The notes under the pieces were generated by a model. The model saw nothing but the letters and a program-made list of their open reading frames with translations. It did no database searches and had not been told where the DNA came from. From NCBI RefSeq assembly GCF_013318015.2, contig NZ_CP115841.1, positions 620,001 through 684,000 on the forward strand: DNA of 64,000 nt. Reading direction: 5' to 3'. How positions within the stretch are numbered: position 1 is the first letter of the stretch; each line of letters starts with the position of its first letter. Below, piece after piece: positions 39,918 through 54,905 of the stretch. Source of the stretch: Agrobacterium tumefaciens. Its GTDB lineage: Bacteria > Pseudomonadota > Alphaproteobacteria > Rhizobiales > Rhizobiaceae. The position numbers and the translations under genes were made by a program.

Positions 39918-39919
39918 AA

Positions 39920-40564: not shown

Positions 40565-41041
40565 CGCTTATAGTCTGGTGAGATTGGCGGCTATAGTGGG
40601 GAAATTCCCCAGTTGATCAGATCGCCAACTTGGCGACTTGGATTAATGGCTTGTGGATTTTCTTGACCGGCAAATAGGCCGCTCGTGATTATGAAAACCG
40701 CAGGCAGAACGAGTGTTTTGAACAAATCGCCTGTGGATAGTTACTCTATGTGGAGACAAACGCGCCGATTCCAGAGTCATAATGTGCGCGTGCCGGAGAG
40801 CAGATGCGTTTAGAACCGCAATAATGACCTGCTCCCCGGACACTGGCGACCCCGGAAGAGGGAGGATCGGTTGCAGCCGATCCTCCCTCACTTGTCCCGG
40901 ACAAGAGGCATTCTTCAATAATCCGTCCGGCCTGCAAAGCCCCGAGCCATCTTTTGCAGGCATTTTTGTTTAAAAGCGCCTTAAGCGGGAAACTCTTCAC
41001 CGCACCATCTGGCAACAGCGTAGAATTTGGGAGGCCCTGTA
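40565..41041. other. Palindrome-rich non-coding segment of the element
   Basis: No supported gene in about 480 bases. It holds GGGGAAATTCCCC (40598-40610), TCGCCAACTTGGCGA (40622-40636), a perfect 13-bp stem GAGGGAGGATCGG/CCGATCCTCCCTC around a six-base loop (40858-40889), and CTTGTCCCGGACAAG right after. None is followed by a T run. It may encode a structured RNA or serve as a recognition region. Confidence 0.5.
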
Positions 41042-41989: not shown

Positions 41990-42012
41990 CATCGTTTCGA
42001 TGTCATGCGCCT

Positions 42013-42183
42013 TTACCGCTTAAATACCAGCGCCGTTATTTCCGAAACGCGACTACCGCTGGCCAAGGATCCCGAGGGACCGCCGAGCCCAAGCCAAGCA
42101 ACGTTGCCATCCTCATCCCAACCGCAGCCGTCAGAAATGACCTTGATGCAGGTTTCGAATTTTTGCATGTAAATTAGAGACAT
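42013..42183 (-). CDS. Small protein at the end of the tail operon (56 aa)
   Basis: A short open frame starting four bases after the tape-measure stop codon, with GGGG seven bases upstream of its ATG at 42183. The product begins MSLIYMQKFETCIKVISDG and continues CGWDEDGNVAWLGLGG, ending ALVFKR. The codon use and tight spacing suggest a genuine last gene of the structural operon. Family unknown; it might be a minor tail or assembly component. Confidence 0.55.
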   Translation of the reverse strand: MSLIYMQKFETCIKVISDGCGWDEDGNVAWLGLGGPSGSLASGSRVSEITALVFKR

Positions 42184-42187
42184 CGGT

Positions 42188-44143
42188 TTACCCCAACTTC
42201 ACGTTGCCCTTTTGGGCCTTCCTGACGGTTTCAATGATGTTTGCTTTCAGATCGCGGTTCGTCTTTTCCAAACCGGCCTGAAGGCGGGCCACGGCTGCAA
42301 CGTCCGCGCCACGGGCGTCAATGTGATAGACTGGCGATAAGGTTACCGCGCCACCACCACCGCCACCCGTGATGGACTTCATGTCGGGAATGCTGGGCGG
42401 CGAAAGCGCCGGTATTGCGCCGACGTAGCCGCCATCAGCGTATCCTTTCAGGCCGCGCCGCATAGCCTCCATGGCTGCAGGACCGCCGGCAGCTTTTACA
42501 GCTGCCTGGTCGAACACGTACTCGCCTTTGTGCACGACGCCGGCAGGCTGGTACTTTCCGCCGTCGCCGGTGTAGCCGCCTTCAGAATAAAGGCCGCCAG
42601 GAGCCGAAGGGAAGCCACCGCCACCACCCTTGAAGATGTCGAACAGTCCGCCGCCGCCCATGTTGAACAGGCTATCGAGTCCGCTGTTGATCAGACGGCT
42701 GCCAAGGTTCTTCAGTGCGTTGCCAAGCACCTCAGCGGCACTTGCGCCTTCAATAAAGCCGTCAACCAACGTGCCAGCGAAATCACGCGCCGCGTCTCGG
42801 GCTTCTTCCGCTGCCGCTTTGGTCTTTTCATAAGCCTCAGACTCGCGATTGATGGCGTCAATCTTGTTGGCAATGGCCAACTGTTCCTCAGCGGTTGCTG
42901 CTGCGCCCGCCTGGCGAAGCGCGTTCATTTTGTCCTGCTGAGCGGCAGACTTGCCAATCAGCGAGTATTCGAAGTCCAGCTGCGCAATCAGGTCGGTCAC
43001 GGCCTGCCGCTCTCGCTCCGCTTCTCTTGTGGCTTTTGCCCTCGCGCTTTCGGCCTTCGGGTCCGGAGGGGTGATAGGCGTGAAAGTGCGGTCTGTCGTC
43101 TTGGAGACCTCGGGCAGTTTTGTGCCCAGTGCGCCGGCAATCGCGCCGCTCTCCTCAGTCAGCTTTTGAAGCTCAATGCGGTACTGGCCGACCGCCTTGT
43201 TGCGCTGCTGCTGCGTTAGCAACTGGTTGTTGGTGGTTTCAAGGATCTTGTTCTCGAGATCAAGTCGCTTGCTGTCGACTTCAGCCTGGCGCGCGGTGAG
43301 CGTACCGGCCATCTGGCTTTCGGTTGCCCGCCAACGGTCGATGAAATCGACCAGCGAATCCGAAGCCGAAACAATAGCCGCCTTTAGGTTCTGGCCCACC
43401 GTGTGCACGATGGTGTTGAATTTTGCGTCCAGTTCCGCAGCGCGATTGATGAGGTCATCATTGATGACAATCCCCAGGTCATTCGCCGCCTTGATTTGGG
43501 CGCGAATTCCTTTCTCACCCTGAGCCAAGAGCGAAACCATGCGCTCGCCGCCGGTGCCCCCGAATAGTTCGTCAAAGATGCGAACGCCAGCGGCGGTGTC
43601 GTTCAACTGCTTTGTGCGGTTGATCAGCAGCAACAGGAATTCGGATGGGTCTTTAAGGCGCTCCTTGACCTCCTGAGGCGACAAGCCAAGCCGCTGGAAC
43701 GCCTCCGCAGCGCTGCCCTTACCGGTCTGCGCAAACTCATCGGCGCGCAGGGACATTTCCTTGAGGCCGTCCGTCATGGCGTCAATTGGAATGCGGGCCT
43801 GTTCCGCAACATAGCGCCATTCCTGAAAGGACTTTGCGGACACGCCGGCCATCTTCGCGGCGTCGCCCAACTCAGCAACGGCTTTCGTAGCTGCCGCGAA
43901 ACCAGCAACGAGACCACCAACACCACCGGCAGCAACCCCTGCAAACAGGCCAGCAAGGCTGGTTTTTGCTACGTCACCAGCTGAACTGAAAGCTTTGCTC
44001 AAGCGGGCCCGCATTCCTTCAGCCGAAGCCTCAATCTTCCGAAAATTGCGATCGGCATTACGTGTTGCGCCGGCGATCTTTCTTTCAAAGTCGGCAACGC
44101 GTGCTTCCAGGAGGACAGCAAGTCGTTCGTACTCTACGCTCAT
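42188..44143 (-). CDS. Phage tail tape measure protein
   Basis: A 651-residue protein that sets tail length and is injected with DNA. N-terminal coiled coil (FERKIAGATRNADRNFRKIEASAEGM), hydrophobic Gly/Ala-rich segment GLFAGVAAGGVGGLVAGFAAATKAVAEL, long helical middle (AEVDSKRLDLENKILETTNNQLLTQQQRN and similar), and a Gly-rich C-terminal part with GEYVFDQAAVKAAGGPAAMEAMRRGLKGYADGGYVG typical of lambda/HK97-type tape measures. The length predicts a short siphovirus-type tail. ATG overlaps the upstream gene stop (ATGA). Confidence 0.92.
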   Translation of the reverse strand: MSVEYERLAVLLEARVADFERKIAGATRNADRNFRKIEASAEGMRARLSKAFSSAGDVAKTSLAGLFAGVAAGGVGGLVAGFAAATKAVAELGDAAKMAGVSAKSFQEWRYVAEQARIPIDAMTDGLKEMSLRADEFAQTGKGSAAEAFQRLGLSPQEVKERLKDPSEFLLLLINRTKQLNDTAAGVRIFDELFGGTGGERMVSLLAQGEKGIRAQIKAANDLGIVINDDLINRAAELDAKFNTIVHTVGQNLKAAIVSASDSLVDFIDRWRATESQMAGTLTARQAEVDSKRLDLENKILETTNNQLLTQQQRNKAVGQYRIELQKLTEESGAIAGALGTKLPEVSKTTDRTFTPITPPDPKAESARAKATREAERERQAVTDLIAQLDFEYSLIGKSAAQQDKMNALRQAGAAATAEEQLAIANKIDAINRESEAYEKTKAAAEEARDAARDFAGTLVDGFIEGASAAEVLGNALKNLGSRLINSGLDSLFNMGGGGLFDIFKGGGGGFPSAPGGLYSEGGYTGDGGKYQPAGVVHKGEYVFDQAAVKAAGGPAAMEAMRRGLKGYADGGYVGAIPALSPPSIPDMKSITGGGGGGAVTLSPVYHIDARGADVAAVARLQAGLEKTNRDLKANIIETVRKAQKGNVKLG

Positions 44144-44601
44144 TTCTTTTTGCTCCTGACGGCTTTGGACATCGCGCGTTTGATTTTGGCTGCGGCCTTT
44201 TTCTGCGCCAGCCGGAAACCCGAGAAGAAGTACGGCTGCGCCCTGCTGCCGGGGTTTTTTGTTCCCGCAAATTGGCCGCCATTGAGGTGGGCTCGTGTCC
44301 CAAACTCAACGAGGTGGGCGTACCTTACCTTGCTATTGCCGGCTGTAATCATCGCGGCGTTTGCAGGTACAACAGTCGAGCGACCTGGCTGACTATGTGG
44401 TGGGGTTTTCTGTCCGCCGGGGGTAACCTCAATGCTGTCCTTCAGATCGCCGTCGTCGACTGGCGCCAGCGCCTTCATAACGGCGGCCACATCCTGTGCG
44501 GCGGAAGTGATTGCAGGCTGGGTCTGCTCGCGCACAGCCTTTGGGATTTTTTCAAGGCGGCGCTTTAGTCGGTCCCAGCCTTCAAGGGTCCGCCTAGCCA
44601 T
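44140..44601 (-). CDS. HK97 gp10-like tail/head-tail joining protein
   Basis: A 153-residue protein with the gp10 family pattern: helical N-terminus (RLKRRLEKIPKAVREQTQPAITSAAQDVAAVMKALAPVDDGDLKDSIEVTPGG), VRYAHLVEFGTRAH, and AQPYFFSGFRLAQKKAAAKIKRAMSKAV. In HK97-type phages this protein joins the head-tail interface and is encoded upstream of the major tail gene; here it lies between the chaperone and tape-measure genes. Coupled to both neighbours by short overlaps. Confidence 0.85.
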   Translation of the reverse strand: MARRTLEGWDRLKRRLEKIPKAVREQTQPAITSAAQDVAAVMKALAPVDDGDLKDSIEVTPGGQKTPPHSQPGRSTVVPANAAMITAGNSKVRYAHLVEFGTRAHLNGGQFAGTKNPGSRAQPYFFSGFRLAQKKAAAKIKRAMSKAVRSKKK

Positions 44602-44956
44602 TTACTGCGGCAGGCTCGGCTTCGTCTGCGGCGCCTCCCTTGCCGTGGAATGCGGCATCCATCACCCGAACCACTAATGGGAAATTCTCTGCCGCGGGTC
44701 GATTCTCGACGTAGTTACGAACCAAGCGCAGCGCATCTGTAGGTTTCGTGCCCCCGCCAATCAGGCCGAGGCGCAGAATTTCGCGTGCGTCATTGAGATT
44801 GACGATGCCGGTGCGGACAGCGTGAAGCAGCGTCGCATACATAGAGCGATCCGTTGTTTTTTCCCATTCACTGGCCAAATCCCAGGTCAGTGCAAATTTA
44901 TACGTGCCGTCAGCAAAGTCTTCTTCGACGATTGCAAATGGTTGTGCTGTGGTCAT
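44594..44956 (-). CDS. Tail assembly chaperone, GTA gp10-like (Phage_TAC_11 type)
   Basis: A 120-residue protein with FAIVEEDFADGTYKFALTW, an N-terminal beta domain, then LNDAREILRLGLIGGGTKPTDALRLVRNYVENRP, the pattern of the chaperone that precedes the tape measure in gene transfer agents and related phages. ATG at 44956; overlaps the gp10-like start by eight bases. The major tail protein expected just upstream is missing; its place is taken by two opposite-strand cargo genes. Confidence 0.75.
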   Translation of the reverse strand: MTTAQPFAIVEEDFADGTYKFALTWDLASEWEKTTDRSMYATLLHAVRTGIVNLNDAREILRLGLIGGGTKPTDALRLVRNYVENRPAAENFPLVVRVMDAAFHGKGGAADEAEPAAVNG

Positions 44957-45052
44957 TTAGATTTTCCTTGTGGATTGTGGGCGGGTTGCATCGACGCGAC
45001 GAACTTCCACGGCAATACTTGCGAGAATTTAGCGCCAAGAGTTGGGGTCTCG

Positions 45053-45550
45053 ATGCCTAGTTGGCTCACAGATATGTTCTCGCGGGAGATAAGCTCTAAG
45101 ATTGCCCTGCCGATACTAGTCTTGTCGGCACTGACGCTTTTCGCTCCAAACGACTATGCGAAAATACTCGGGATAGACGGTTTCAGAAGCGAGTATAGGC
45201 TCTGGATCGGTGCGGCATTTGTGCTGTCCTCTTCGGCGTTGGTTACCAATGCCATCTGGAGCGCAGCAATTTTTCTAAAGCCGTGGGTAAGCGGATGGGT
45301 CTTTGTTCAAACGCACAAAAAAAACCTACACTCGCTCACATCGGACGAGAAGGCTATTCTCCGCCTGTTTATTATCGACGGAGAATCCACCGTCTACGAA
45401 GATGCCAACACTGGTGCGATAAATTTGCTTGTGAACAAGCATATCGCACACCGCGCAAGCAATTTGTCATTGAGAATGACTAGGTTTGCCTACATATTGC
45501 ACCCGTGGGCACGAGAGTATCTCGAAAAGAACCGAAGTCTTCTTGAATAA
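45053..45550 (+). CDS. Superinfection exclusion protein B (SieB)-like membrane protein
   Basis: A 165-residue inner-membrane protein. Two hydrophobic segments (IALPILVLSALTLFAP and YRLWIGAAFVLSSSALVTNAIW) flank DYAKILGIDGFRSEYR, followed by a cytosolic domain with SDEKAILRLFIIDGEST and TRFAYILHPWAREYLEKN. This layout matches the SieB family, with which prophages block development of other phages. ATG at 45053 with GGGG five bases upstream; the long in-frame extension to 44822 overlaps the chaperone gene and is rejected. It is a plus-strand 'moron' inside the minus-strand structural operon. Confidence 0.75.
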   Translation: MPSWLTDMFSREISSKIALPILVLSALTLFAPNDYAKILGIDGFRSEYRLWIGAAFVLSSSALVTNAIWSAAIFLKPWVSGWVFVQTHKKNLHSLTSDEKAILRLFIIDGESTVYEDANTGAINLLVNKHIAHRASNLSLRMTRFAYILHPWAREYLEKNRSLLE

Positions 45551-45611
45551 AATAGAGATGCGCAGCAAAGTAGGCATTTCGTAATTCATAATTGCATAGC
45601 AGGAGAGCAAC

Positions 45612-45824
45612 GTGTCGAACGCCGGATGGATATTTTATTTGGAAGACGGTATAGACCGGTACGTGGTTCATGTATCAGAACCGGATCGCAATGCAGCGGC
45701 GAACCTGATACCCGCAAATCTGCGAGGTCTAAATGTGACTAATGAGCAGATCATGAGCAAATCGTTGAACGATTTCTTTCCTCTACAGCCAGGAAAAGTA
45801 GCTGTGGGAAAATACCTCGTCTAA
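45612..45824 (+). CDS. Small hypothetical protein (70 aa), cargo
   Basis: Unrecognised soluble protein (begins MSNAGWIFYLEDGIDRYVVHVSEPDRNAA, ends GKVAVGKYLV). The start is GTG at 45612, six bases after AGGAG. It follows the SieB-like gene by 61 bases on the same strand and may be co-transcribed. About 240 bases without a gene follow, including a GC-rich imperfect hairpin around 45955-45983. Confidence 0.6.
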   Translation: MSNAGWIFYLEDGIDRYVVHVSEPDRNAAANLIPANLRGLNVTNEQIMSKSLNDFFPLQPGKVAVGKYLV

Positions 45825-46067
45825 CGATTTTCCATCATAGAGGCCGGCGCTATGTGTCGAAAACCCTTTTGGCGCGGCTGTGCATACTGGTAAGTTCCTC
45901 TCGATCAGTCTCACACTTAGCTCGATTGGCGTAAGCCAAAAAACTCAATGATTTCTCGCACGCGCGCTTGCGCACGCGCGAGGCAAAAATCTGTGTTTGC
46001 ATTAAAAGTGCATTCCCCCGCCGGTCCGCAGCTGAGGGGTCTTGGACTTTTTGACCACCCCGGTGGG

Positions 46068-46301
46068 TCAGAGGTACGCTGCCTCACCCCACGTCGTCAC
46101 CTCGCGGACGTTTACTGCCCTTGCTCGACCGTCCATTCCCGTGACGCGGTCATAGTCAAATCGCTGGCCGATGCGTGGCGCATCATGATCCGGCATACTT
46201 GTGATGTGGACAAAGTCGCCGCCCTTCTCGCGTGCGCCTTCCTCTTGGATGAAACCGAAACCGCGATCGGTCATCCACTTTATGATCTTGCCTGATGGCA
46301 T
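46068..46301 (-). CDS. Cold-shock domain protein
   Basis: A 77-residue single cold-shock domain: SGKIIKWMTDRGFGFIQEE with RNP1-like RGFGFI, then GGDFVHITSM as RNP2-like. Such proteins bind single-stranded nucleic acid. The sequence differs from housekeeping CspA in its RNP2 (FVHIT) and its basic end, and it stands within the structural operon, so it is probably a phage gene. ATG at 46301 with GAGGAC seven bases upstream. Confidence 0.85.
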   Translation of the reverse strand: MPSGKIIKWMTDRGFGFIQEEGAREKGGDFVHITSMPDHDAPRIGQRFDYDRVTGMDGRARAVNVREVTTWGEAAYL

Positions 46302-46365
46302 TGTTCAGTCCTCATACGTGGTAAAGGGTGGATCTTTAGATGGCTGAGCGAACAGTGCGTCGCAA

Positions 46366-46614
46366 TCAGATCAACTGTTTGGCGCGAAGGCGCTTGATGC
46401 GAGCGGCAAGCTCTTCATCTGTCTCTGGCTTGATGATCGCCTCAGTGACAAGGACAGTGCCGTGATCCATCTCGAATGGCCCGCCTTCTTCTGCCTGCGG
46501 ATCATCCTTGCCGAGCTCTTCTTCAAGCATTTCGGTTGCCATCTGAAAGGCTGCACGGAAGCCTTCAAGATAAGACTTTACATGCGCTGTTACATCGAGG
46601 CGTGTTGCTTCCAT
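46366..46614 (-). CDS. Hypothetical phage protein (82 aa)
   Basis: Unrecognised acidic helical protein (FRAAFQMATEMLEEELGKDDPQAEEGG, then DEELAARIKRLRAKQLI). ATG at 46614 with GGAGA six bases upstream. It begins just after the terminator-like hairpin that follows the capsid gene, so it is expressed by read-through or from its own promoter. Confidence 0.6.
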   Translation of the reverse strand: MEATRLDVTAHVKSYLEGFRAAFQMATEMLEEELGKDDPQAEEGGPFEMDHGTVLVTEAIIKPETDEELAARIKRLRAKQLI

Positions 46615-46623
46615 GTGCTTCTC

Positions 46624-46670
46624 CAAAAAAGAAAAAGGGGTGGCCTGCTGCCGGTGCTCAGCAGCAGGCC
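46624..46670 (-). terminator. Strong hairpin/terminator after the capsid gene
   Basis: On the minus strand GGCCTGCTGC and GCAGCAGGCC form a perfect 10-bp stem, followed by ACCCCTTTTTCTTTTTT. Located between the capsid stop (46718) and the next gene, it would favour capsid over downstream expression. Confidence 0.8.
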
Positions 46671-46717
46671 GGTGATAGCGCGGCCACTCATATCGACGCT
46701 ATCTGGATGCTTGGCGA

Positions 46718-47815
46718 TTAGGCCTCGAAGTCACCGGCGACCAGAGACTCTGGGCGATAGACCGCCAGAGCCAGACGTTCTTCAATGCGCGCAGTCGCCA
46801 TGTTCTTCTCGAAGTCGTCAGCGTTTTCTGTGCTGATTTCGAAAGTAACCTGCTGTCGGTCGAAGACCTGCGCGGCAGTAGCGAGTGCACCCACAAGGAA
46901 CTGGCCGGCTGGCATGGCGGTGGTGTCGACAATCGGCAGGCGCCAGATGCGGCCCGAGCCGCCTTCCACCGGGTCAACGATGATATAGTTGCCGCCGGCG
47001 TCTTTCGTCAGCTCGAGCTCGGCCAGATCGTCCGGGTTCATGACGATGCCGGTTGCGGTATACTCGGCGCGACGCACCTGCTGGATGGCGCGGCGAATGG
47101 TGTCGACGCGAGTGTCGCCGGTATGGCGTAGGCTGTCGTCGAATTCGGTCGCCTGGGGAATAAGGCCAAGGATATTCTGGCCAGTGCCGCTACCAAACAG
47201 AAGCTGCTGCTCCTCGACCAGCTTCAAGCCGGTTGTGCCACGCAGATCCAGATAGGAGACCAGCCCGGCGACGTCATCAAGCATCTGCTTGGAGAGTTTG
47301 AAGAGGTGCGCAATGGTCCGAACCGACGCGGTCTTCAGGTCGAACGTGATGTCAGAATAGGGCTTTTGCGTAGTCTCGGCGACAGGTGCCGCGTTATTGG
47401 TGAAGCCGGTTTCCTGTACGAATTCGATCGAGCCGGCAGTGGTCTTGCCGGGCGCGATGAGGTCACGCACCGTGAGAACACGCTGGGCTGGTGCGACTAT
47501 GCCGGGGCGGCGATCGGCGGGGACAAGAGAAGTGCCCTGCGAGCGACCAGTGCCGACGGTCGTGTTTCCTGATGTGATGGCGGCAGATTCGACATAAGCG
47601 CGGCCACGATTGGCGCCACCGTTCAACTCCTTGAAGGCCGGCGTGTTGACCAGCGCTGTTGCCAGGCTTTCGCCCGTGGCGAAGTTGTCGTTGGCGTGGC
47701 CGTCCATACGGGCGAAGCTCTTTTCAAGGCCGGAAATTCGCTCAGACAGGTCGGTTGTGGCGGTGTTGAAAGCGGAGCCAAGCTGCTCGATTTTTGCAGC
47801 GATATTGTCAGTCAT
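46718..47815 (-). CDS. HK97-fold major capsid protein
   Basis: A 365-residue phage capsid subunit. The N-terminal 45 residues are coiled coil (AAKIEQLGSAFNTATTDLSERISGLEKSFARM), a scaffold/delta-like domain that is short for the family. The core has VLTVRDLIAPGKTTAGSIEFVQETGFTNNAAPVAE, TIAHLFKLSKQMLDDVAGLVSYLDLR and the C-terminal RIEERLALAVYRPESLVAGDF typical of the family. No capsid maturation protease is encoded nearby. ATG abuts the upstream gene stop (TGAATG). Confidence 0.92.
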   Translation of the reverse strand: MTDNIAAKIEQLGSAFNTATTDLSERISGLEKSFARMDGHANDNFATGESLATALVNTPAFKELNGGANRGRAYVESAAITSGNTTVGTGRSQGTSLVPADRRPGIVAPAQRVLTVRDLIAPGKTTAGSIEFVQETGFTNNAAPVAETTQKPYSDITFDLKTASVRTIAHLFKLSKQMLDDVAGLVSYLDLRGTTGLKLVEEQQLLFGSGTGQNILGLIPQATEFDDSLRHTGDTRVDTIRRAIQQVRRAEYTATGIVMNPDDLAELELTKDAGGNYIIVDPVEGGSGRIWRLPIVDTTAMPAGQFLVGALATAAQVFDRQQVTFEISTENADDFEKNMATARIEERLALAVYRPESLVAGDFEA

Positions 47816-48103
47816 TCAGGTGTCCTTTTCGACATAGGAGAACGCGCCGAGGTAGGCAAGCATGTGCGGCAGATACGTTCGTCCGGGTTTGTCTGTGTTG
47901 GCGGCATTCCATGCGTCGATTTCGACGACGTGCCGCTTGGCTTGGCGGTATAGATCGCGATGCGCAGCGATCTGTTCGGGTGTCCGGTGCTTTTGGATGG
48001 CTTCTTCGATTGCAGCGGCAACGGGGTTGGCTGAAACTTCAGCCTTCTTTGTCGCTGCCTCCACTCGAATTTCTGCGAGCAGGCGCGTAACTTCAGACGT
48101 CAT
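47816..48103 (-). CDS. Hypothetical phage protein (95 aa)
   Basis: Unrecognised, helical (begins MTSEVTRLLAEIRVEAATKK; ends LGAFSYVEKDT). ATG at 48103 overlaps the stop of the 48100-48594 gene (ATGA), and its own stop abuts the capsid start, so it is translationally coupled on both sides. Its position just before the capsid gene is where a protease or scaffold would lie, but no Ser-His-Lys/Asp protease pattern is seen. Confidence 0.6.
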   Translation of the reverse strand: MTSEVTRLLAEIRVEAATKKAEVSANPVAAAIEEAIQKHRTPEQIAAHRDLYRQAKRHVVEIDAWNAANTDKPGRTYLPHMLAYLGAFSYVEKDT

Positions 48104-48594
48104 TGCGCAGCCCGCCATTCTTTCGCCAGCGCTTCGAACGCGGGACCGGCAACAAGCGCCTGCTTCACAGCGCCGGTTGTCTGCGTGGCACCGAAAACGG
48201 CATGGACGCCTTGGCCGCAGACATCGGCGAGAATATCGACGCCCGGGTTTTCCAGATCATTGCGCAGCACAATGCTCTTGATGACCGGGAAAAACGGGTT
48301 TGACCGGCCGCCGTCGAACGCGGCTGCAATAGCCTCAACGAGCGACATGCAGAGCCTTGGGGAATGGATACGGGCAAACTTGTCGACGCTTTCGCCTACT
48401 GAGCCGAGACCGTTGTCGGCCAGCACGGCGATAAGTAGCCGCGCCATCTGGTCAGCGGAGAGGGGTGGATAGGTGCGTCCTACGGCCTTGGGCAGAACGC
48501 CGGCATCCGCAGCACGTTGCGCCAATGAAGTGACGCGACCTAGGCCAATGCCGAGGGTCTTTGAAATGGCAAAGCATGCCGCAGCTTTTCGCAC
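48100..48594 (-). CDS. Hypothetical phage protein, first gene of the structural operon (164 aa)
   Basis: Not assigned. The N-terminal part (AISKTLGIGLGRVTSLAQRAADAGVLPKAVGRTYPPLS) looks like a helix-turn-helix or DNA-contact region, followed by a helical domain. It could be a small-terminase-like or regulatory protein; the evidence does not separate these. The start is GTG at 48594, five bases after AAAGGAGG, a strong site. A palindrome at 48607-48624 lies directly upstream. Confidence 0.6.
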   Translation of the reverse strand: MRKAAACFAISKTLGIGLGRVTSLAQRAADAGVLPKAVGRTYPPLSADQMARLLIAVLADNGLGSVGESVDKFARIHSPRLCMSLVEAIAAAFDGGRSNPFFPVIKSIVLRNDLENPGVDILADVCGQGVHAVFGATQTTGAVKQALVAGPAFEALAKEWRAAQ

Positions 48595-48606
48595 GGTCGC
48601 CTCCTT

Positions 48607-48624
48607 TCATTTTTGGAAATGAAT
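48607..48624. promoter_or_regulatory. Palindromic site upstream of the structural operon
   Basis: TTCATTT-TTGG-AAATGAA, a perfect 7-bp inverted repeat with a four-base spacer, sits 13 bases upstream of the GTG start and touches the ribosome-binding site. It could be an operator for late gene control. Confidence 0.45.
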
Positions 48625-48649
48625 GTTTTGGGTGTTTAAAAAATCGCAG

Positions 48650-48691
48650 GCGCTCTGCCGGTCGTCGAGGAGACAGACGTCGGCAGAGCGC
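48650..48691 (-). terminator. Terminator-like hairpin between replication and structural modules
   Basis: GCGCTCTGCCG and CGGCAGAGCGC form a perfect 11-bp stem with a 20-base loop; on the minus strand CTGCGATTTTTT follows. It separates structural genes from upstream transcription. Confidence 0.7.
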
Positions 48692-48817
48692 GCGATCGAA
48701 CCGCGATACCACTCGCGGGATTTCAGGGTGGCAGTACATCCGTGCGCACCATGATTGGAAACTGGGGTGAGCTACCGCGCGCGGCAACCCACCATCACGG
48801 CAGTGACGGCTGCCGGA

Positions 48818-48846
48818 AATGATAAAGGCCCGCATCGCTGCGAGCC
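48818..48846 (-). terminator. Terminator after the 48888-49670 gene
   Basis: On the minus strand GGCTCGCA-GCGA-TGCGGGCC with one T-G pair, then TTTATCATTT, about 40 bases past the stop codon. Confidence 0.7.
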
Positions 48847-48887
48847 TCTCTCTCTTATACCCTGTAGCGCGGGGAAATGGGGTACCC

Positions 48888-49670
48888 CTATGCGGCGAGC
48901 CTGTCTTGAGCACGCCAATGGCGATCCACAATCCCGAGGCCGTCGAATATCCTGGCGCGCGCCTCACCTTTGGCTCCTTTGCTCCCTGCGCCGAGCCGCT
49001 TGCCGATTTCGTCGAGCGTCATGCCGTCGACGACCGACCACTCGAAAGCTTCAAGGATGGCCGGGACATAAGCCAGCTTGGCGCGAAGGATCGCTAGTTC
49101 TCGCTTTGCATCGATCGCCGCCAGGATTGGCCAGTCGCCGTTCCACTTCTTAGGCACCGGTGCCGCAAGCTTGCGGGTGGTCTCGCCGGCAGATGTCTTT
49201 TTGGTTGGCGCGGTGTCAGGGTTCGCCTTCTTGCCTGTCACGACCTTAACGCCTTTTGACCGGCCTTCTGCATCTTGGTTCTCTACGAAGAAGAGGTTTT
49301 CGCATTCCTTGCCGATCAACTGCGTCGGCCGCGAAGCGGTGTCGTGCAGGTCTCGGTACCGACCTGCGAGCGAAAGGAAGTAGTCTTTGCCTTCGGTTCG
49401 CAAAAGCTTCTGCAGCGGCCAATCGGCATTGTCATTGGCCGCTTGGCCGTCGAAGCCATTGGAGGCGTACCAGGCGGTTCCGTTCGCGCGAAACCTCTCC
49501 ACCTCGTCGTGAGGCGCAACCGACAAGAAAATTTTCGGTAAGGGATCTCCTGCTATGAGCACGACGTCTCCGCGCTTCATGCGCGCGCGTCTTGGCGACC
49601 ATTCGCCAGCATCGAGAGAAATTGCAGTCGGCGTGTCGCGCCGGTCAAAAACCGGATTGTCTTTTTCCAT
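48888..49670 (-). CDS. Hypothetical phage protein with C-terminal helix-turn-helix-like region (260 aa)
   Basis: Family not recognised. The C-terminal third (AILEAFEWSVVDGMTLDEIGKRLGAGSKGAKGEARARIFDGL) resembles a sigma-region-4-like helix-turn-helix, with TLDEIGKRLG as the helix pair. A Lys/Thr-rich linker precedes it, and the N-terminal domain has DVVLIAGDPLPKIFLSVAPHDEVERFRANG. It may regulate the structural operon, whose control region lies downstream. ATG at 49670 with AAGGTG nine bases upstream. It is flanked by terminators and stands alone. Confidence 0.6.
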   Translation of the reverse strand: MEKDNPVFDRRDTPTAISLDAGEWSPRRARMKRGDVVLIAGDPLPKIFLSVAPHDEVERFRANGTAWYASNGFDGQAANDNADWPLQKLLRTEGKDYFLSLAGRYRDLHDTASRPTQLIGKECENLFFVENQDAEGRSKGVKVVTGKKANPDTAPTKKTSAGETTRKLAAPVPKKWNGDWPILAAIDAKRELAILRAKLAYVPAILEAFEWSVVDGMTLDEIGKRLGAGSKGAKGEARARIFDGLGIVDRHWRAQDRLAA

Positions 49671-49954
49671 TAGGCCGTCACCTTATGAAAGAGGGTGTTG
49701 AGAGCTGCATACCGACAAGATGTCGGACACACATACTTTCCGAGAGAGGCGCGAAAACGGGTAGTCGATTTGAGAATATTTTTTGATGTCTACCGCAGAT
49801 GTATAATTGAAATATATCCAGTAAAATTATACGCCATAACGAATTATGTAAGAAGTTATATTATTCGCTGTGAGTAAAAACCTAGATCGCTGAATTTCTG
49901 TTGCTTTACAGCAATCATACGAAGATAATTCCCTTGGTATAACGGAGATTCGCT
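49671..49954. promoter_or_regulatory. AT-rich divergent promoter region upstream of the cargo operon
   Basis: About 284 bases between divergent genes. CCGACAAGATGTCGG (49712-49726) is a perfect 6-bp inverted repeat with a three-base spacer, 42 bases upstream of the 49670 start. The stretch 49770-49900 is strongly AT-rich with several TATAAT-like hexamers (TATAAT at 49801, TTATATTATT near 49857), unlike the rest of the element. Confidence 0.55.
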
Positions 49955-50233
49955 ATGGCAGATGTGCTTGTGACATGTATCAATAAAAAAGATCGAAACA
50001 GCAGCCACGAGGGTATTACTCATCTAGGCAATCCGAATGCTGGTGGTGGTTGGAAGTGGACGAGGGCTGAGGTCATTGCTTCAATCGAAGCGAAGACAAA
50101 TACCTTCTACACTTATGTAAACGGAAACCGCGGCGACATTGGTGTCGTTAATGGGCAGAACGGGAAGTACGTAAGGACTTACGCAGACGGAAAATGGAAT
50201 GACAACCTGTTGTCGCTTCCAGAGTGCAACTGA
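49955..50233 (+). CDS. DUF3892 domain protein, first gene of a four-gene cargo operon
   Basis: A 92-residue protein that fits the DUF3892 pattern: VTCINKKDRNSSHEGITHLG, then GGGWKWTRAEVIASIEAKTNTFYTYVNGNRGDIGVV and a C-terminal LLSLPEC. The function of the family is unknown. ATG at 49955 with GGAG seven bases upstream, behind an AT-rich promoter region. Genes at 50254, 50404 and 50853 follow with very tight spacing, so the four are probably one transcript. Confidence 0.8.
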   Translation: MADVLVTCINKKDRNSSHEGITHLGNPNAGGGWKWTRAEVIASIEAKTNTFYTYVNGNRGDIGVVNGQNGKYVRTYADGKWNDNLLSLPECN

Positions 50234-50253
50234 TTTTTTTGGATGCAAGTAAA

Positions 50254-50403
50254 ATGTCGAACGACAAAAAAACTTCAATTCCCGCTAATAAGCAAACCGG
50301 ACGCGTCACTCAAGACGGTGTCAAAAACACCCAGCAAAAATCTTTTTCCACTGCTGGTAATAAGGACAAAATCGCAAAGCCAAAACCAGGGGGTGGCCGC
50401 TAG
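50254..50403 (+). CDS. Small basic Lys/Gly-rich protein (49 aa), cargo operon
   Basis: A short hydrophilic product (begins MSNDKKTSIPANKQTGR, ends KDKIAKPKPGGGR) with many Lys, Asn and Gln and no hydrophobic core, probably disordered. GGA lies about ten bases before the ATG. Its TAG stop directly abuts the TTG start of the next gene, which argues for real translation and coupling. No family recognised. Confidence 0.55.
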   Translation: MSNDKKTSIPANKQTGRVTQDGVKNTQQKSFSTAGNKDKIAKPKPGGGR

Positions 50404-50856
50404 TTGATTCAGTGGTTGGCTTCTTCAGAAAACTTGTCATGGCTGGCGAATACCGTAACAGCAGTCGGCCTGCCAATCGGTTTGTTGGGCTTGCTGGCCG
50501 TAACGATCCAAATGCGTAATGATCGGTTAGCTGTTTCGGCTGCTGCAATTGGCCAGATGCGATCTGATATAATGGATCGCGTTGACCGCATCCACCAGGC
50601 GCAAAAGAGCGGAAACGTCACTTTATGGGAAAGCGAGTTCGGTGAGCTCGCTAATGATCTCGAGATGGCCTGCGCCATCTATCTCGACGGGCAGATGGCA
50701 GGACGCACTGGTAGGCTTGCGAAAAACATGATCACCGATTTCTTGAATATGATCAACGAAGACGACGACTTGCGAGATGAGCTAGATCGGCTCGTACATG
50801 CGAAACATACATTCCAAAATATCCGAGACTTCCGATCAAAATCGAGGCGACCATGA
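50404..50856 (+). CDS. Single-pass membrane protein (150 aa), cargo operon
   Basis: Unrecognised. One N-terminal membrane segment, VTAVGLPIGLLGLLAVTIQM, then a cytosolic helical domain with heptad-like stretches (RSDIMDRVDRIHQAQKSGN, DDDLRDELDRLVHAKHTFQN). The start is TTG at 50404, immediately after the upstream TAG and following an AGGGGGTGG tract. The stop overlaps the next ATG (ATGA). Topology suits a membrane-anchored effector or sensor. Confidence 0.7.
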   Translation: MIQWLASSENLSWLANTVTAVGLPIGLLGLLAVTIQMRNDRLAVSAAAIGQMRSDIMDRVDRIHQAQKSGNVTLWESEFGELANDLEMACAIYLDGQMAGRTGRLAKNMITDFLNMINEDDDLRDELDRLVHAKHTFQNIRDFRSKSRRP

Positions 50857-51353
50857 TACGATCAAGAGCTCTCCGAAGAACACCAGTCGACGACCTTGTG
50901 CCGGGTGATCTGTTCCGTTTCAGTTATGGATCTGGAGCAGTATTGGCGCTTTTTTTGGAACGTGTCGAAGGTGAAGCGCCAAGGGTGGGGATACTTCAAG
51001 GCGCAGACTTCAAAACCAACATGATCTGGCTAGATTACAATGGCGGGCCGCGTGAATGTCTTTCCTACGGAAGTGAGTGGCTGCTTGAAGAGGAGCACGG
51101 ATCCGAAACCTATTGTGGGGAACGACAATCAAGGGGAAAGGCACGCCTCTATATTGATACCCCCGGCCTGGTCATGGTGTTCGGTCCATCGAACGGAAAC
51201 ATCTTCGGCTTTAACTTTGTGATTGACCTACAATCAAGCGCCTCGTTCAAATTAACCCCGGATGCCGCGCCGATATTAGGATGGAAAATTTGGGAGAACG
51301 AAGCTCACCGTGACAGCGGTAATGCGCCGTTGTTTGATACCGAGAACCCCTGA
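50853..51353 (+). CDS. Hypothetical beta-rich protein (166 aa), cargo operon
   Basis: No family recognised. Mostly beta strands with PVDDLVPGDLFRFSYGSGAVLALFLERV at the start and GNIFGFNFVIDLQSS late; no membrane segment or catalytic motif is obvious. The ATG overlaps the previous stop by four bases, so expression depends on the operon. It converges with the 51420-51737 gene across 66 bases that include TGGCAAAAATTGCCA (51401-51415). Confidence 0.7.
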   Translation: MIRSRALRRTPVDDLVPGDLFRFSYGSGAVLALFLERVEGEAPRVGILQGADFKTNMIWLDYNGGPRECLSYGSEWLLEEEHGSETYCGERQSRGKARLYIDTPGLVMVFGPSNGNIFGFNFVIDLQSSASFKLTPDAAPILGWKIWENEAHRDSGNAPLFDTENP

Positions 51354-51419
51354 CGTTCTCTCTCGGGCATGTGGTCCGTCATTTTCGCCATAGCCAGTCA
51401 TGGCAAAAATTGCCACAAC

Positions 51420-51737
51420 TCAGTTATTAGGAATTTCCGAACCACTTCCTTGTTGGAAGTGGTTGCTGGTCACACTGCGGGCACCGCCAAGAGCGCTGTC
51501 GCCGGTGAACCGCTTGCCGCAGTCACTGCATTTGCACATGTATCCACCGGGCGCGAACCCAGCGGTGTTGTCATTGGCTTCGATCCTTCCAAGGGCGTCC
51601 GCAACGGCATTGGCCAGCATGTGCAATTCATGCACAAGCTCGCTCTTTTCCTCATGGAAGCGGAACGGATCCCGGTGGCTTGGCGCAAGCCGCGCCAGCC
51701 GGTTGGCCAGCGCGTGAAAGTCGTTGGCTATGTTCAT
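51420..51737 (-). CDS. Small phage protein with zinc-ribbon-like half site (105 aa)
   Basis: Helical N-terminus (MNIANDFHALANRLARLAPSH) and a Cys cluster YMCKCSDCGKRFTG that resembles the first half of a zinc ribbon. The second Cys pair is not visible, so the domain may be truncated or may use another ligand. ATG at 51737 overlaps the stop of the upstream replication gene (ATGA), marking it as the last gene of the replication unit. Confidence 0.6.
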   Translation of the reverse strand: MNIANDFHALANRLARLAPSHRDPFRFHEEKSELVHELHMLANAVADALGRIEANDNTAGFAPGGYMCKCSDCGKRFTGDSALGGARSVTSNHFQQGSGSEIPNN

Positions 51738-52543
51738 GCGGCCTCCAGCGGAAGAAAATCGTCGCTCGCCGTAAGAAGCAGCGGAATGCCTATCACGTCG
51801 CTAGGCTTATTGATCTGGTCGATGCCGAGAGCGATCGCCAGTCGTTCGAGCTTTTTCATACCGCGTTCCTGCATGCCTTGATCTTCGTCGCTTTGGACAC
51901 ACACGGCATATTGCTCTTTGGCGCCATCGGCGTCCTCGAGCTCCATTTGAAGCCAGTCTGATCCATCGTCTTTGTCGTGCTCAATGTGGCTCGAGACAAT
52001 GGTCATCACGCGATCTTCAGACGCACGGGCCGGGGCGGCCGACAGGCCCGACCCCGCGCCCGCTGCGGATGTATTTACTTTGTCTCTGGCTGTAGCCGAG
52101 ACAAGTAAATGAGTTTGCTCCTGCGGCTGTGGGACGCTACCAGATTTAGCGTCCTGTGACCGTAGGACGATCTCGTCCTGTGGCTGTAGGACGCTTGATT
52201 TTGTTTCGTCCTGTGACGGTAGGACACTAGTAGTGTCCGGCGACTGTAGGACGCTAAAATTCGGGTGGTATTGTGAGGGCCGTTTGCCGGAACCCATGAC
52301 GCGGGTGAAGTAGCCCCAGTCAACAAGATCCTCTGTTGCGCTTGCGACGCTGCCCCTAGTCAGGCCGGTGGCTTGCTGCAAGAAACTAACACTGGCGCGC
52401 GCGTTGCCATGCTTTTGGTAATAGCGCTTGAGAATGTGGCGCGCGGTCTTGATGTGGATGAGCCGCACGCGCTCATCGTCGATGATGGCTCCTAAGAGTT
52501 CTATACGGTCGACGGGACCGCCAGCGTGATCAGGCTTGCTCAT
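51734..52543 (-). CDS. Phage replication protein, lambda-O-like, with internal iterons
   Basis: A 269-residue protein. The N-terminal winged helix (RLIHIKTARHILKRYYQKHGNARASVSFLQQATGLTRGSVASATEDLVDWGYF) matches helix-turn-helix replication initiators. The middle is a repeated peptide of the type VLxxQDxxx encoded by DNA iterons, and the C-terminal domain contains SSHIEHDKDDGSDWLQMELEDADGAKEQY. In lambda, gene O holds its own origin in the same way. ATG at 52543 is preferred over an upstream in-frame start. It overlaps both neighbours. No helicase loader or helicase gene is visible, so host DnaB is presumably recruited. Confidence 0.65.
   Translation of the reverse strand: MSKPDHAGGPVDRIELLGAIIDDERVRLIHIKTARHILKRYYQKHGNARASVSFLQQATGLTRGSVASATEDLVDWGYFTRVMGSGKRPSQYHPNFSVLQSPDTTSVLPSQDETKSSVLQPQDEIVLRSQDAKSGSVPQPQEQTHLLVSATARDKVNTSAAGAGSGLSAAPARASEDRVMTIVSSHIEHDKDDGSDWLQMELEDADGAKEQYAVCVQSDEDQGMQERGMKKLERLAIALGIDQINKPSDVIGIPLLLTASDDFLPLEAA
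52117..52253. repeat. Five palindromic iterons, candidate replication origin
   Basis: Copies start at 52117, 52150, 52174, 52207 and 52234, each about 20 bases with inverted ends CGTCCT...AGGACG around GTGACCGT-like centres. Spacings of 33, 24, 33 and 27 bases are all multiples of three, so the copies stay in frame inside the replication gene. Confidence 0.75.
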
Positions 52544-52877
52544 ATTTAGCCATCCGTGCGTCATGTGCCGCCCGCCAATCATCCCCGCGCTCGACGACAG
52601 GGATGTACATTGCGCGGCCTTCCTCGGTGCGCCCGATCTCCTTAATGAAACCGGCATCGATCGCGCCCCTTATGGTGTTCCACATGGTTTTGCGGCCGAC
52701 GCCGTAGCGCGCTGCCAAGGCGTTAGTGCGCAGGACGGCAAACCCGTGTTCGCGCCACTGCTCCACGACCAGGGCGGGAATGCGAAAACCGTTCTTTGTC
52801 TTGAGCACATATGCGCCAGCGGTCATGTAATCGGTTAGACGCTCGATATCGTCGTCGTTAAGCGATCGGTGGTCCAT
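52530..52877 (-). CDS. Helix-turn-helix phage protein (115 aa)
   Basis: A DNA-binding-like protein: a helical N-terminus (DDDIERLTDYMTAGAYVLKTKNG) and a helix-turn-helix segment LAARYGVGRKTMWNTIRGAIDAGFIKEI. It is the gene before the replication protein, overlapping its start by 14 bases, so it may be a regulator or a replication partner. ATG at 52877 with AAGGA six bases upstream. Confidence 0.7.
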   Translation of the reverse strand: MDHRSLNDDDIERLTDYMTAGAYVLKTKNGFRIPALVVEQWREHGFAVLRTNALAARYGVGRKTMWNTIRGAIDAGFIKEIGRTEEGRAMYIPVVERGDDWRAAHDARMAKYEQA

Positions 52878-52957
52878 CTCAATCCTTTCTGGAGAGCGCA
52901 CGAATGCGCGCCTGCCGGCAGGCGTCGGCAGGTTGTTGGAGGTGATGGCGGTTTCCT

Positions 52958-53191
52958 TTAGATGAGGCCGGCTTGGCGCGCCGCTGCAACGCGGTTGATG
53001 TCCTCAATGGCTGCGTCAAAACGGTTCGCAGCGGTTTTCTCAAATGCGACGGCTTCGAAAGCGATAATGGCCAGTTGGACTGTCGCGAGCGATTTCATGC
53101 TTGCGGCAAGTTCGCCGGTCTCCGCAGCCTGCACCACTAGCTTTTTGCGTTCTTCTTTCAATGCGCCAAGATAATCTTGAACGGAACTCAT
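52958..53191 (-). CDS. Small helical phage protein (77 aa)
   Basis: Unrecognised all-helical protein (DYLGALKEERKKLVVQAAETGELAASMKSLATVQLAIIAFEAVAFEKTAANRFDAAIEDINRVAAARQ in outline). ATG at 53191 overlaps the stop of the AlpA-like gene (ATGA). It belongs to the early unit with the genes on either side. Confidence 0.6.
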   Translation of the reverse strand: MSSVQDYLGALKEERKKLVVQAAETGELAASMKSLATVQLAIIAFEAVAFEKTAANRFDAAIEDINRVAAARQAGLI

Positions 53192-53400
53192 GCCGCCGCC
53201 CTCGCGCCAATCGCAGTTTCAATCCAAGCCTCAACCTCGGCGCGGACGTAAGCGATTCGCTTCAAGCCGATCTGCACCGGCTGCGGGAAGCGGTTTTCTT
53301 TGGACATGCGGGCAAGCAGCACGCGCGACATAGTCGTTGCGGCTGCTGCTTCTTTCGGCGTCATCAGGCGCGGCTTGTTGTCATTCGCTGGAATGGTCAT
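53188..53400 (-). CDS. AlpA-family regulator/excisionase-like protein
   Basis: A 70-residue MerR-like helix-turn-helix protein: MTPKEAAAATTMSRVLLARMSKENRFPQPVQIGLKRIAYVRAEVEAWI, the AlpA pattern. AlpA proteins act as transcription activators or excision factors for P4-type integrases. ATG at 53400 with GAGGAG five bases upstream. Next to the integrase gene, it is the candidate directionality factor. Confidence 0.8.
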   Translation of the reverse strand: MTIPANDNKPRLMTPKEAAAATTMSRVLLARMSKENRFPQPVQIGLKRIAYVRAEVEAWIETAIGARAAA

Positions 53401-53614
53401 GGTGACTCCTCGAAGCCAAGACAGAGTCATGGCGTGAAATGGAACGAAGATTTTTGAGAAGGTTCGGTTGCCGGCTGATGCCGGTGAAGGTTAGGGGCGC
53501 TGGGCGCCAATGAGCCGGTTTTCCCGGCGCTGCTTTTTGGCGGGCACCACCCCACCGATTGCCGCAACCACCACAATTGCGACGCTCATTTAATAGACCG
53601 ATTTTACAAATTTG

Positions 53615-54787
53615 TCAAGATTTGGAAACTGTTGAAACCTTGCTTTCGCAGTATTCGGTCCAGTCCTCCATCATGGCGCGCCGCTTCGCAAGCGCGTCAC
53701 TCCGGCGATATGCTTGCTCAACGACATCACCCACGGCGTGGGCAAGGGCAGCTTCCGCAACCTCGCGGGGGTGGCCGGTGGTATCGCCTGCCCAGTCGCG
53801 GAAGGATGAGCGCAGACCGTGCAGCGTAATGGACTTGTCCTCTGACGCGGCCCGCAGACTTTTCACCATTGCCGTATCCGATATCGCCGCGCCTTCCTTG
53901 CCGCCCTCGAATACCAGGTCACCGGTCGCCGCCTGCTTACGCGCCTCAAGGATAGCCAGCATCCGGCCGGTGAGCGGAACACGGTGCTCACGTCCAGCCT
54001 TCATTCGCTCAGCCGGCACAATCCAAACCGCCTGAGCAAAATCGATTTCAGACCAGACTGCGCCGCGAACTTCGCCGGAACGTGAAGCGGTGAGGGCGGT
54101 AAACTCCACAGCCCGAGCCGAAACGGCGTCACTTGCCCGAAGCTTCGCCATAATGGCAGGCATGTCTTTATATGCCGCCGCTGCATGGTGGCCGCGCGTC
54201 AGCTTGCTGCGTGCGGGCAAGAGCTCTTTCAAGCCCCCGCGCCAGCTGGCCGGGTTATCACCGGTGAACAGCCCGCGTGCCCGCGCGTGGTCCAAAACCG
54301 CCGCGATTCGCATTCTGGTTCGGTCGGCGGTTTCTGGAATGGTGGTCCAGATAGGTTTCAGGGCTTCAACAACGTCGTCGCGTGTGATGTCGCCTACCGG
54401 CTTCTTGTGCAGCGGCTTTGCATATTCATCGAGCGTCATGCGCCATTGCGCCTTGTGCTTCTCATTCTTAAAGCTGGCTTCCTTCACGGCAATGACGTCT
54501 TCCATGACGTCGGCGAAGGTTTTGCGCGTGGCCAGATCCTCGCCGCGCGCCAGACGTGCGCGAACCTCATCCGCTTTTTCCCGTGCCAAGGCCAGCGGTA
54601 CTGGTGCCGTGCCTTGGCCATAGCCGCCTAGACCGATCTCGACGCGCTTACCTGCGCGTTTGTATATAAAGACCCATTGGCGGCTGCCGCCGGCGCGCAC
54701 GCGAAGGAAAAGGCCGTCGCCGTCGCCGTAAATACCCGGCTTTGTGAGCGTCTTTATCTTGGTCTCTGAAAGCTTATTGCGCGCCAT
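53615..54787 (-). CDS. Tyrosine integrase (P4/DUF4102 type)
   Basis: A 390-residue site-specific recombinase. The N-terminal DUF4102 arm-binding domain (KIKTLTKPGIYGDGDGLFLRVRAGGSRQWVF) is followed by a core-binding domain and the catalytic domain with Arg in TASRSGEVRG, LHGLR, the His of ALAHAVGD and the nucleophile in VVEQAYRR, so all key residues are present. Such integrases commonly target tRNA 3' ends. It lies 103 bases from the right attachment copy and reads inward. The enzyme looks intact. Confidence 0.95.
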   Translation of the reverse strand: MARNKLSETKIKTLTKPGIYGDGDGLFLRVRAGGSRQWVFIYKRAGKRVEIGLGGYGQGTAPVPLALAREKADEVRARLARGEDLATRKTFADVMEDVIAVKEASFKNEKHKAQWRMTLDEYAKPLHKKPVGDITRDDVVEALKPIWTTIPETADRTRMRIAAVLDHARARGLFTGDNPASWRGGLKELLPARSKLTRGHHAAAAYKDMPAIMAKLRASDAVSARAVEFTALTASRSGEVRGAVWSEIDFAQAVWIVPAERMKAGREHRVPLTGRMLAILEARKQAATGDLVFEGGKEGAAISDTAMVKSLRAASEDKSITLHGLRSSFRDWAGDTTGHPREVAEAALAHAVGDVVEQAYRRSDALAKRRAMMEDWTEYCESKVSTVSKS

Positions 54788-54889
54788 GCTTCGCCCGTTG
54801 TCATAACTTTATGCATGAAATTATGGCAAATACGGCCATTGTCAACGAAATCGTATCAATAATTTCAATAGCTTACGAAGCGCGGCGGA

Positions 54890-54905
54890 CATCCTCTCCG
54901 CCATT
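54890..54905. other. attR core
   Basis: Exact 16-bp copy of CATCCTCTCCGCCATT found in the tRNA-Ser 3' end. Bases on either side differ from the left copy, so the repeat ends here. Confidence 0.88.

What the first reader, a model, noticed from the sequence alone, without database searches (positions are those of the whole stretch)
49955..51353. Four-gene DUF3892-led operon as a candidate undescribed system
Four coupled genes on the plus strand (DUF3892 protein, 49-residue basic protein, single-pass membrane protein, beta-rich protein) stand between phage replication and structural genes, behind an AT-rich promoter and against the main direction of transcription. Stops and starts touch or overlap (TAG-TTG, ATGA). 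Such tight cargo operons in prophages often block other phages or help the host; a membrane protein with a soluble partner suits a sensor-effector pair. Function is inference only.
Basis: partly seen in the sequence, partly recalled or inferred. Interest (0 to 1): 0.7.

Follow-up and report, generated by a model that had tools for sequence, protein, structure and literature searches.

The report
Swappable prophage cargo with membrane-protein pair
A small virus-like element in a bacterial genome carries an interchangeable gene cassette, built around a tiny basic protein encoded directly ahead of a membrane protein, which probably helps the cell resist other viruses, although no function has been shown.

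Summary
The four genes are real, but the unit was drawn wrongly. DUF3892 (g1) is genuine, yet adjoins the others only here among the g3 loci I read. The conserved unit is g2 (49 aa, basic) - g3 (150 aa, one membrane segment), with g4 (166 aa, beta-rich) in 5 of 11 loci. A g2-type ORF precedes g3 in 11 of 11 loci by reading; a leave-group-out profile ranked it first in 10 of 10 tested. Junctions are -4 to +2 nt in 10 of 10 measured. The cassette sits in a 16.5-kb prophage- or satellite-like element (38369-54905) that also carries SieB. Against L183 and L184, 88-91% DNA identity stops at 49783-49785 and resumes at 51394; between, they carry a diverged g2-g3 cassette. So this is swappable cargo. 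I infer superinfection exclusion or abortive infection, with g2 restraining g3. g2-g4 reach no curated Pfam or NCBIfam cut-off and no convincing PHROG or PADLOC match; g3 and g4 have no significant fold match. Function is untested.

The parts
38369..54905 (.). Integrated mini-prophage / satellite-like element (about 16.5 kb) that holds the cassette
   Evidence: 16-bp repeat at 38369-38384 (3' end of tRNA-Ser) and 54890-54905; integrase, AlpA, capsid, tail genes
38292..38382 (+). tRNA-Ser (GCT), attachment site
   Evidence: ARAGORN; Rfam tRNA 60.7 bits
49680..49954 (+). AT-rich leader of the cassette, 38.2% GC
   Evidence: no consensus promoter on the plus strand in the scan
49955..50233 (+). 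g1, DUF3892 protein, 92 aa; optional leader gene, not part of the conserved unit
   Evidence: PF13031 63.7 bits, phrog_8224 72.9 bits; not seen beside g3 elsewhere
50254..50403 (+). g2, 49-aa basic protein with motif KSFST...KIAKPKP
   Evidence: leave-group-out profile finds it first, E 1.1e-5; alignment
50404..50856 (+). g3, 150 aa, TTG start, membrane segment 13-37 then helical bundle
   Evidence: 32 homologues; hydropathy; model pLDDT 85.2
50853..51353 (+). g4, 166 aa, beta-rich, no hydrophobic segment
   Evidence: homologues; model pLDDT 84.2, pTM 0.82; hydropathy
49786..51393 (.). Exchanged segment: no DNA match to relatives L183 and L184, which hold another g2-g3 cassette here
   Evidence: blastn blocks end at 49785 (L183) or 49783 (L184) and resume at 51394; cassette content
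44993..45550 (+). SieB-family superinfection-exclusion protein, second variable slot of the same element
   Evidence: PF14163 84.2 bits, cut-off 26; the matching interval is about 300 bp in L063, L064 and L183
41084..41989 (+). DUF2971 protein, further plus-strand gene of the element
   Evidence: PF11185 26.1 bits, cut-off 22
46718..47815 (-). Major capsid protein
   Evidence: PF05065 194 bits
48888..49670 (-). gene X, backbone gene left of the slot, function unknown
   Evidence: 83% identical protein in L064; DNA match in L183, L184, L064
51420..52657 (-). p105 and a replication-type gene, backbone right of the slot
   Evidence: 51734-52657 matches replication-initiation PHROGs only weakly (best E 0.006); p105 end conserved in L183/L184
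53188..53430 (-). AlpA-type regulator
   Evidence: PF05930 38.4 bits, cut-off 21
53615..54787 (-). Tyrosine integrase
   Evidence: PF00589 44.3 bits, PF22022 85.9 bits

Best explanation
This is a mobile exclusion cassette carried as cargo by a prophage- or satellite-like element. Its core is a pair of tightly joined genes: g2, a small basic, probably disordered protein, and g3, a single-pass inner-membrane protein with a helical bundle after the membrane segment. I propose that g2 binds the g3 bundle through its K[SG][LF][ST]T motif region and keeps it silent in the lysogen. Invasion by a competing phage disturbs the complex, through g4 or the interchangeable leader proteins (DUF3892 here), and freed g3 assembles in the membrane and stops phage entry or the infected cell. 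Shown: gene coupling, constraint, co-occurrence, slot exchange, SieB in the same element. Inferred: the anti-phage role, g2-g3 binding, silencing, topology, membrane action, and any role of g4 and DUF3892.
For: A g2-type ORF lies upstream of g3 in 11 of 11 distinct loci by reading, and was the top profile hit in 10 of 10 tested with near kin left out. Junctions are -4 to +2 nt in 10 of 10 measured loci, with g3 starts chosen by me and a doubtful CTG start in L183 and L184. dN is below dS: g3 0.12 vs 1.73, g4 0.13 vs 0.82, g2 0.46 vs 0.89 (L002/L003); g2 0.07 vs 0.73, g3 0.018 vs 0.138 (L183/L184). Cassette exchange at 49786-51393 between elements 88-91% identical in the adjoining left backbone, with a diverged g2-g3 in L183/L184 (g3 35-36% identical). 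L063 has a 175-aa hydrophobic protein in the corresponding region. g2-g3 cassettes in a similar place and against the backbone direction in L046 and L033. SieB in the same element; a RelA/SpoT protein matching PADLOC candidate PDC-S33 (293.5 bits) in relative L064. g3 also lies on four Sinorhizobium plasmids, among transposases in the two opened.
Against: No convincing PADLOC match for g1-g4 (only g3 to ZorA1, E 0.0025, 14.3 bits, residues 10-33, and Csx1, 11.2 bits). No known toxic or pore domain. g4 was not seen in 6 of 11 g3 loci and also occurs without g3, so it may not belong to the mechanism. No expression or phage data. Slot exchange also fits toxin-antitoxin genes or other morons. The family is rare: 6 of 394 genomes of the family, 2 of 297 of the order, own genome included. 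One g3 copy (L177) is broken by a stop.
Confidence: 0.42

Rival explanations
1. A toxin-antitoxin pair for element maintenance: g2 is the antitoxin, encoded just ahead of the membrane toxin g3; loss of the element frees g3.
For: Small basic partner upstream, abutting or overlapping genes, constant pairing in mobile elements; L034 has a Fic/Doc-family gene beside the cassette (43.1 bits).
Against: No match to known toxin or antitoxin families for g2 or g3 at the cut-offs used. Does not explain g4 or the varied leader genes. An exclusion system may also be toxin-like, so the two overlap.
Confidence: 0.22
2. A satellite's tool against or for its helper phage: g3/g4 change helper entry, packaging or lysis so that the element spreads.
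For: The element has capsid and tail genes and AlpA but no unassigned ORF as long as a large terminase or portal (ORF list; assignments); related elements L033 and L066 carry small terminase genes (29.0 and 27.9 bits).
Against: A g2-g3 cassette also sits among tail genes of an ordinary-looking prophage contig (L182), and g3 lies among transposases on two plasmids.
Confidence: 0.13
3. Lysogenic conversion for host fitness (stress, envelope, plant association), not phage-directed.
For: g3 occurs on four large Sinorhizobium plasmids.
Against: The two plasmid copies opened lie among transposases; other variable genes of this element and its relatives are of exclusion or defence-candidate type.
Confidence: 0.13
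4. Virion, lysis or holin component of the prophage.
For: Lies next to structural genes; g3 is a small membrane protein.
Against: Opposite strand and lower GC than the capsid gene; exchanged as a block; g3 also on plasmids; no meaningful PHROG match for g2-g4; no significant fold match of g4 in the viral or PDB libraries.
Confidence: 0.04
5. Four unrelated small ORFs that only look like an operon.
For: DUF3892 is indeed an independent passenger.
Against: g2-g3-g4 order is kept in Sinorhizobium, Ensifer and a viral contig.
Confidence: 0.02

Closest known systems
RexAB-type prophage defence pairs (lambda RexAB; Sbash gp30/gp31; Butters gp30/gp31)
   Same: Prophage-borne adjacent pair of one cytosolic and one membrane protein that blocks other phages (passages of PMC7542560, and PMC6426596).
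   Different: Those membrane partners have four predicted transmembrane segments, and Sbash gp30 and RexA a DUF4747 motif; here one segment, a 49-aa partner, and no DUF4747 match.
[quoted passage not shown]
   Same: Fixed backbone with a slot holding interchangeable cargo (abstract and outline of PMC9122126).
   Different: Different element family and host group; antiviral activity not tested here; cargo proteins unassigned.
SieB superinfection exclusion (PF14163)
   Same: An exclusion protein; a member lies in the same element at 44993-45550.
   Different: g3 does not match PF14163, nor do the 15 members of alignment A4 among the families listed.
Min-Wnt/DUF3892 proteins of the lipocone superfamily paper
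   Different: Here DUF3892 is a separate gene, and I saw no constant partner for it.

Membership tests
DUF3892 (PF13031) | Pfam score above the gathering cut-off | tested here: met
   63.7 bits vs 22.3, residues 6-89
RexAB-like pair | Membrane partner with four transmembrane segments | tested here: not met
   One hydrophobic segment 13-37 in g3; one in 27 of 32 homologues, none in the 5 of 113-115 aa that lack the N-terminus
RexAB-like pair | DUF4747 motif in the cytosolic partner | tested here: not met
   No such match for g1, g2, g4 at E up to 1, nor for 15 g4 relatives at E up to 5
Known defence systems in PADLOC-DB 2.0.0 | Match to a system protein model | tested here: not met
   g1, g2, g4 none at E up to 1; g3 only ZorA1 (E 0.0025, 14.3 bits, residues 10-33) and Csx1 (E 0.053, 11.2 bits)
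Zorya | ZorA of about 640 aa | tested here: not met
   150-aa protein, best stretch 24 residues of a 639-position model
Type II toxin-antitoxin | Two small adjacent or overlapping genes | tested here: met
   Junction 0 nt here, -4 to +2 in 10 measured loci; co-transcription not tested
Type II toxin-antitoxin | Toxicity of one protein neutralised by the other | not testable with these tools
   needs expression
Type II toxin-antitoxin | Homology to a known toxin or antitoxin family | tested here: not met
   (one of 15 g3 members has Epsilon_antitox at E 0.14, not meaningful)
Superinfection exclusion | Blocks superinfecting phage in the lysogen | not testable with these tools
   needs plaquing
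Phage satellite (PICI/P4-like) | Small element with integrase and AlpA at a tRNA | tested here: met
Phage satellite (PICI/P4-like) | Lacks genes for autonomous packaging and lysis | tested here: inconclusive
   No unassigned ORF of large-terminase or portal size between the att repeats (expected sizes recalled), but not every small ORF was scanned
Phage satellite (PICI/P4-like) | Helper-dependent mobilisation | not testable with these tools
   needs induction with a helper
Virion protein | Match to structural PHROGs or virion folds | tested here: inconclusive
   No meaningful PHROG match for g2-g4; no Foldseek match at E <= 0.001 for g4 or for g3 in PDB; absence is weak evidence

The most novel reading that the evidence does not exclude
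A new class of anti-phage system: a co-translated pair of a disordered motif-bearing guard peptide and a single-pass membrane effector, with interchangeable small leader proteins (DUF3892, YjzC-like, or another small protein) and an optional beta-rich adaptor. It diversifies by block exchange inside a family of satellite-like elements of Rhizobiaceae.
Probability: 0.25. Interest if true: 0.72.

Novelty: new variant of a known kind. Interest (0 to 1): 0.48.

Why it matters
It turns an anonymous stretch of hypothetical genes into a defined, testable unit: two proteins found together in every g3 locus read, in a slot that closely related elements fill with a diverged version of the same pair. If it excludes phages, it adds a minimal membrane-effector design to prophage defence and gives a place to look for more in rhizobia. 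It also separates DUF3892, a domain of unknown function, from a system that it only accompanies.

Tried and rejected
Rejected: DUF3892 as an integral member. Rejected: a virion role as the leading idea. Rejected as meaningful: ZorA1 and Csx1 hits of g3, the HMG-CoA synthase hit of g4 (E 0.27), Fe_dep_repr_C for one of 15 g3 members (E 0.0029), DUF3553 for one of 15 g4 members (E 0.075).

No match: g3 and g4 in the phage records; PDB sequences for g1 and g4, and only two chance rows for g3 at E 0.63 and 0.74; Rfam at gathering scores besides the tRNA. A regex for the g2 motif hit 6 of 10,155 short ORFs, all g2 and two of them copies of one sequence, but the regex was made from these, so it is circular; one search is the fair test.

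Gene X as the left border is firm only in L064, L183 and L184. The genes in that position in L033, L046, L052 and L053 are only 14-21% identical to it, and L063's was judged by eye, so their 'same slot' is by position and gene order. Papers: the word DUF3892 occurs in 3 papers of the library. Passages of PMC8987031 and PMC9936078 were seen and not used.

Full report
1. The observation. g1 (49955-50233) is DUF3892 (63.7 bits, cut-off 22.3). g2 (50254-50403) is 49 aa with net charge +8. g3 (50404-50856, TTG) has one hydrophobic segment, residues 13-37. g4 (50853-51353) is modelled as beta-rich. g1 and g2 are 20 nt apart, g2-g3 abut and g3-g4 overlap by 4 nt. The leader has 38.2% GC and the cassette 49.2%, against 60.4% for the capsid gene. 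The promoter scan gave no plus-strand site, so a promoter there is only likely.

2. The setting. A 16-bp sequence at the 3' end of tRNA-Ser (38369-38384) is repeated at 54890-54905 beside the integrase, which bounds a 16.5-kb element. Integrase, AlpA, a weakly assigned replication-type gene, capsid, tail-tube (TAC_11), gp10-like and tape-measure genes lie on the minus strand. No unassigned ORF in the list is as long as a large terminase or portal (expected sizes recalled). Plus-strand genes include SieB (44993-45550, 84.2 bits, cut-off 26) and DUF2971 (26.1 bits, cut-off 22). The element is therefore probably a defective prophage or a satellite; helper dependence is untested.

3. What is conserved. 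In 394 genomes of the same family g3 was found in 6, g4 in 12 and DUF3892 in 9. Five of the 6 g3 genomes have g4 beside g3. Two of these five (G138, G202) give the same alignment and count as one lineage. DUF3892 adjoins g3 only in the window; G063 has it on another contig. Order-wide profile searches found g3 in 2 of 297 genomes and g4 in 3 of 297, each count including the window's own genome. G138 agrees in contig length and position with S. sojae plasmid NZ_CP023069.1, and g3 lies on three further plasmids, of S. fredii. In the two that I opened, a gene at the place of g4 follows and the surroundings are transposases. The host family is thus taken to be Rhizobiaceae.

4. The g2-g3 pair. I collected 11 distinct g3 loci: the window; L002 (with L030 and L031); L003 (with L032); L046 (with L185); L047 (with L181); L182; L183; L184; L033; L034; L177. 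A g2-type ORF precedes g3 in all 11. I recognised most of these by eye. As a test I built a g2 profile without the locus and its nearest kin and searched the short six-frame pieces of that locus. The true g2 came first in 10 of 10 (E 2.5e-15 to 2.3e-3; the best other piece had E 0.06; L184 was not run separately). Gaps are -4 to +2 nt in 10 of 10 measured loci, with g3 starts chosen by me; in L183 and L184 the fitting start is CTG, so their g3 start is unsure, and L177 was not measured. The g3 of L177 is broken by a stop codon. dN is below dS: g3 0.12/1.73, g4 0.13/0.82 and g2 0.46/0.89 between L002 and L003; g2 0.07/0.73 and g3 0.018/0.138 between L183 and L184. The other pairs compared were saturated at synonymous sites.

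5. Companions vary. g4 is next to the pair in 5 of 11 loci (downstream in the window, L002, L003, L046; upstream in L034) and was not seen in 6. g4 also occurs without g3, in prophage and other settings. The gene before g2 is DUF3892 here; a YjzC-like protein in L046 (16.4 bits, below the cut-off of 25) and, by eye, in L003; and another small protein in L033, L183 and L184 (by eye). DUF3892 itself was found in 11 viral contigs with differing neighbours.

6. Cassette exchange. L184 matches the window at 90.5% DNA identity from 46749 to 49783. Similarity then stops and resumes at 51394 (75%). L183 behaves alike (87.9% from 48718 to 49785, resuming at 51394 with 83%). The gap brackets leader and cargo, and in both relatives it holds a small protein, a g2 with two motif copies and a g3 that is 35-36% identical to the window's. 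L063, 89% identical over 46667-48643, holds a hydrophobic 175-aa protein on the opposite strand just outside the gene in gene-X position. L046 and L033 hold g2-g3 cassettes, and L052 and L053 DUF3892 with other genes, in a like position and against the backbone direction. There the flanking gene is only 14-21% identical to the window's gene X, and the L053 contig ends soon after, so this is position, not proven homology of both borders. L065 shows no cargo between its replication-type gene and gene X. The SieB interval is a second variable slot: about 300 bp, too short for SieB, in L063, L064 and L183. L064 carries, beside the capsid gene and on its strand, a RelA/SpoT protein matching the PADLOC candidate PDC-S33 (293.5 bits).

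7. Mechanism. Shown: coupling, constraint, co-occurrence, block exchange, membrane segment. Inferred: that the cassette protects against phages (by association with SieB and PDC-S33 and by slot turnover), that g2 holds g3, and that g3 acts at the membrane. The g3 model is a long helix from residue 8 to 69 followed by four further helices (pLDDT 85.2); no fold match is significant. [quoted passage not shown] This would suit a sensor, but its independence from g2-g3 makes that optional.

8. Compared with the known. The nearest working analogues are RexAB-like prophage pairs (passages), which differ in having four-segment membrane partners and, in Sbash and lambda, DUF4747. [quoted passage not shown] A 16.8-kb putative Pseudomonas satellite without identified terminase or lysis genes (passages) is a parallel for the element's size; unlike this one, its virion proteins come from the helper. 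None of g2-g4 belongs to a family in Pfam, PHROGs, NCBIfam or PADLOC at a meaningful score.

9. Verdict. An anti-phage role is the best guess at about 0.4, toxin-antitoxin next; the two overlap.

Noticed in passing
window 38369-54905: A 16.5-kb element at tRNA-Ser with capsid, tail-tube and tape-measure genes and AlpA but no unassigned ORF of large-terminase or portal size; relatives L033 and L066 carry a small terminase subunit (29.0 and 27.9 bits). It may be a capsid-encoding satellite class.
   Followed up: partly
window 44993-45550: SieB-family exclusion protein (84.2 bits) on the plus strand inside the minus-strand structural genes; the same interval is too short for it in L063, L064 and L183.
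   Followed up: partly
L064:3174-4253: RelA/SpoT-domain protein matching PADLOC candidate PDC-S33 (293.5 bits) beside the capsid gene of a near relative of this element.
   Followed up: partly
   Followed up: no
L048:7971-9025: A g4 relative overlaps by 4 nt a following 178-aa protein with an N-terminal hydrophobic stretch, apparently not a g3; g4 may pair with more than one membrane protein.
   Followed up: no
window 52118-52279: Three imperfect 45-nt repeats within the replication-type gene, possibly origin iterons.
   Followed up: no
window 41084-41989: DUF2971 gene with low GC (47.4%) at the far end of the element, another likely cargo gene.
   Followed up: no
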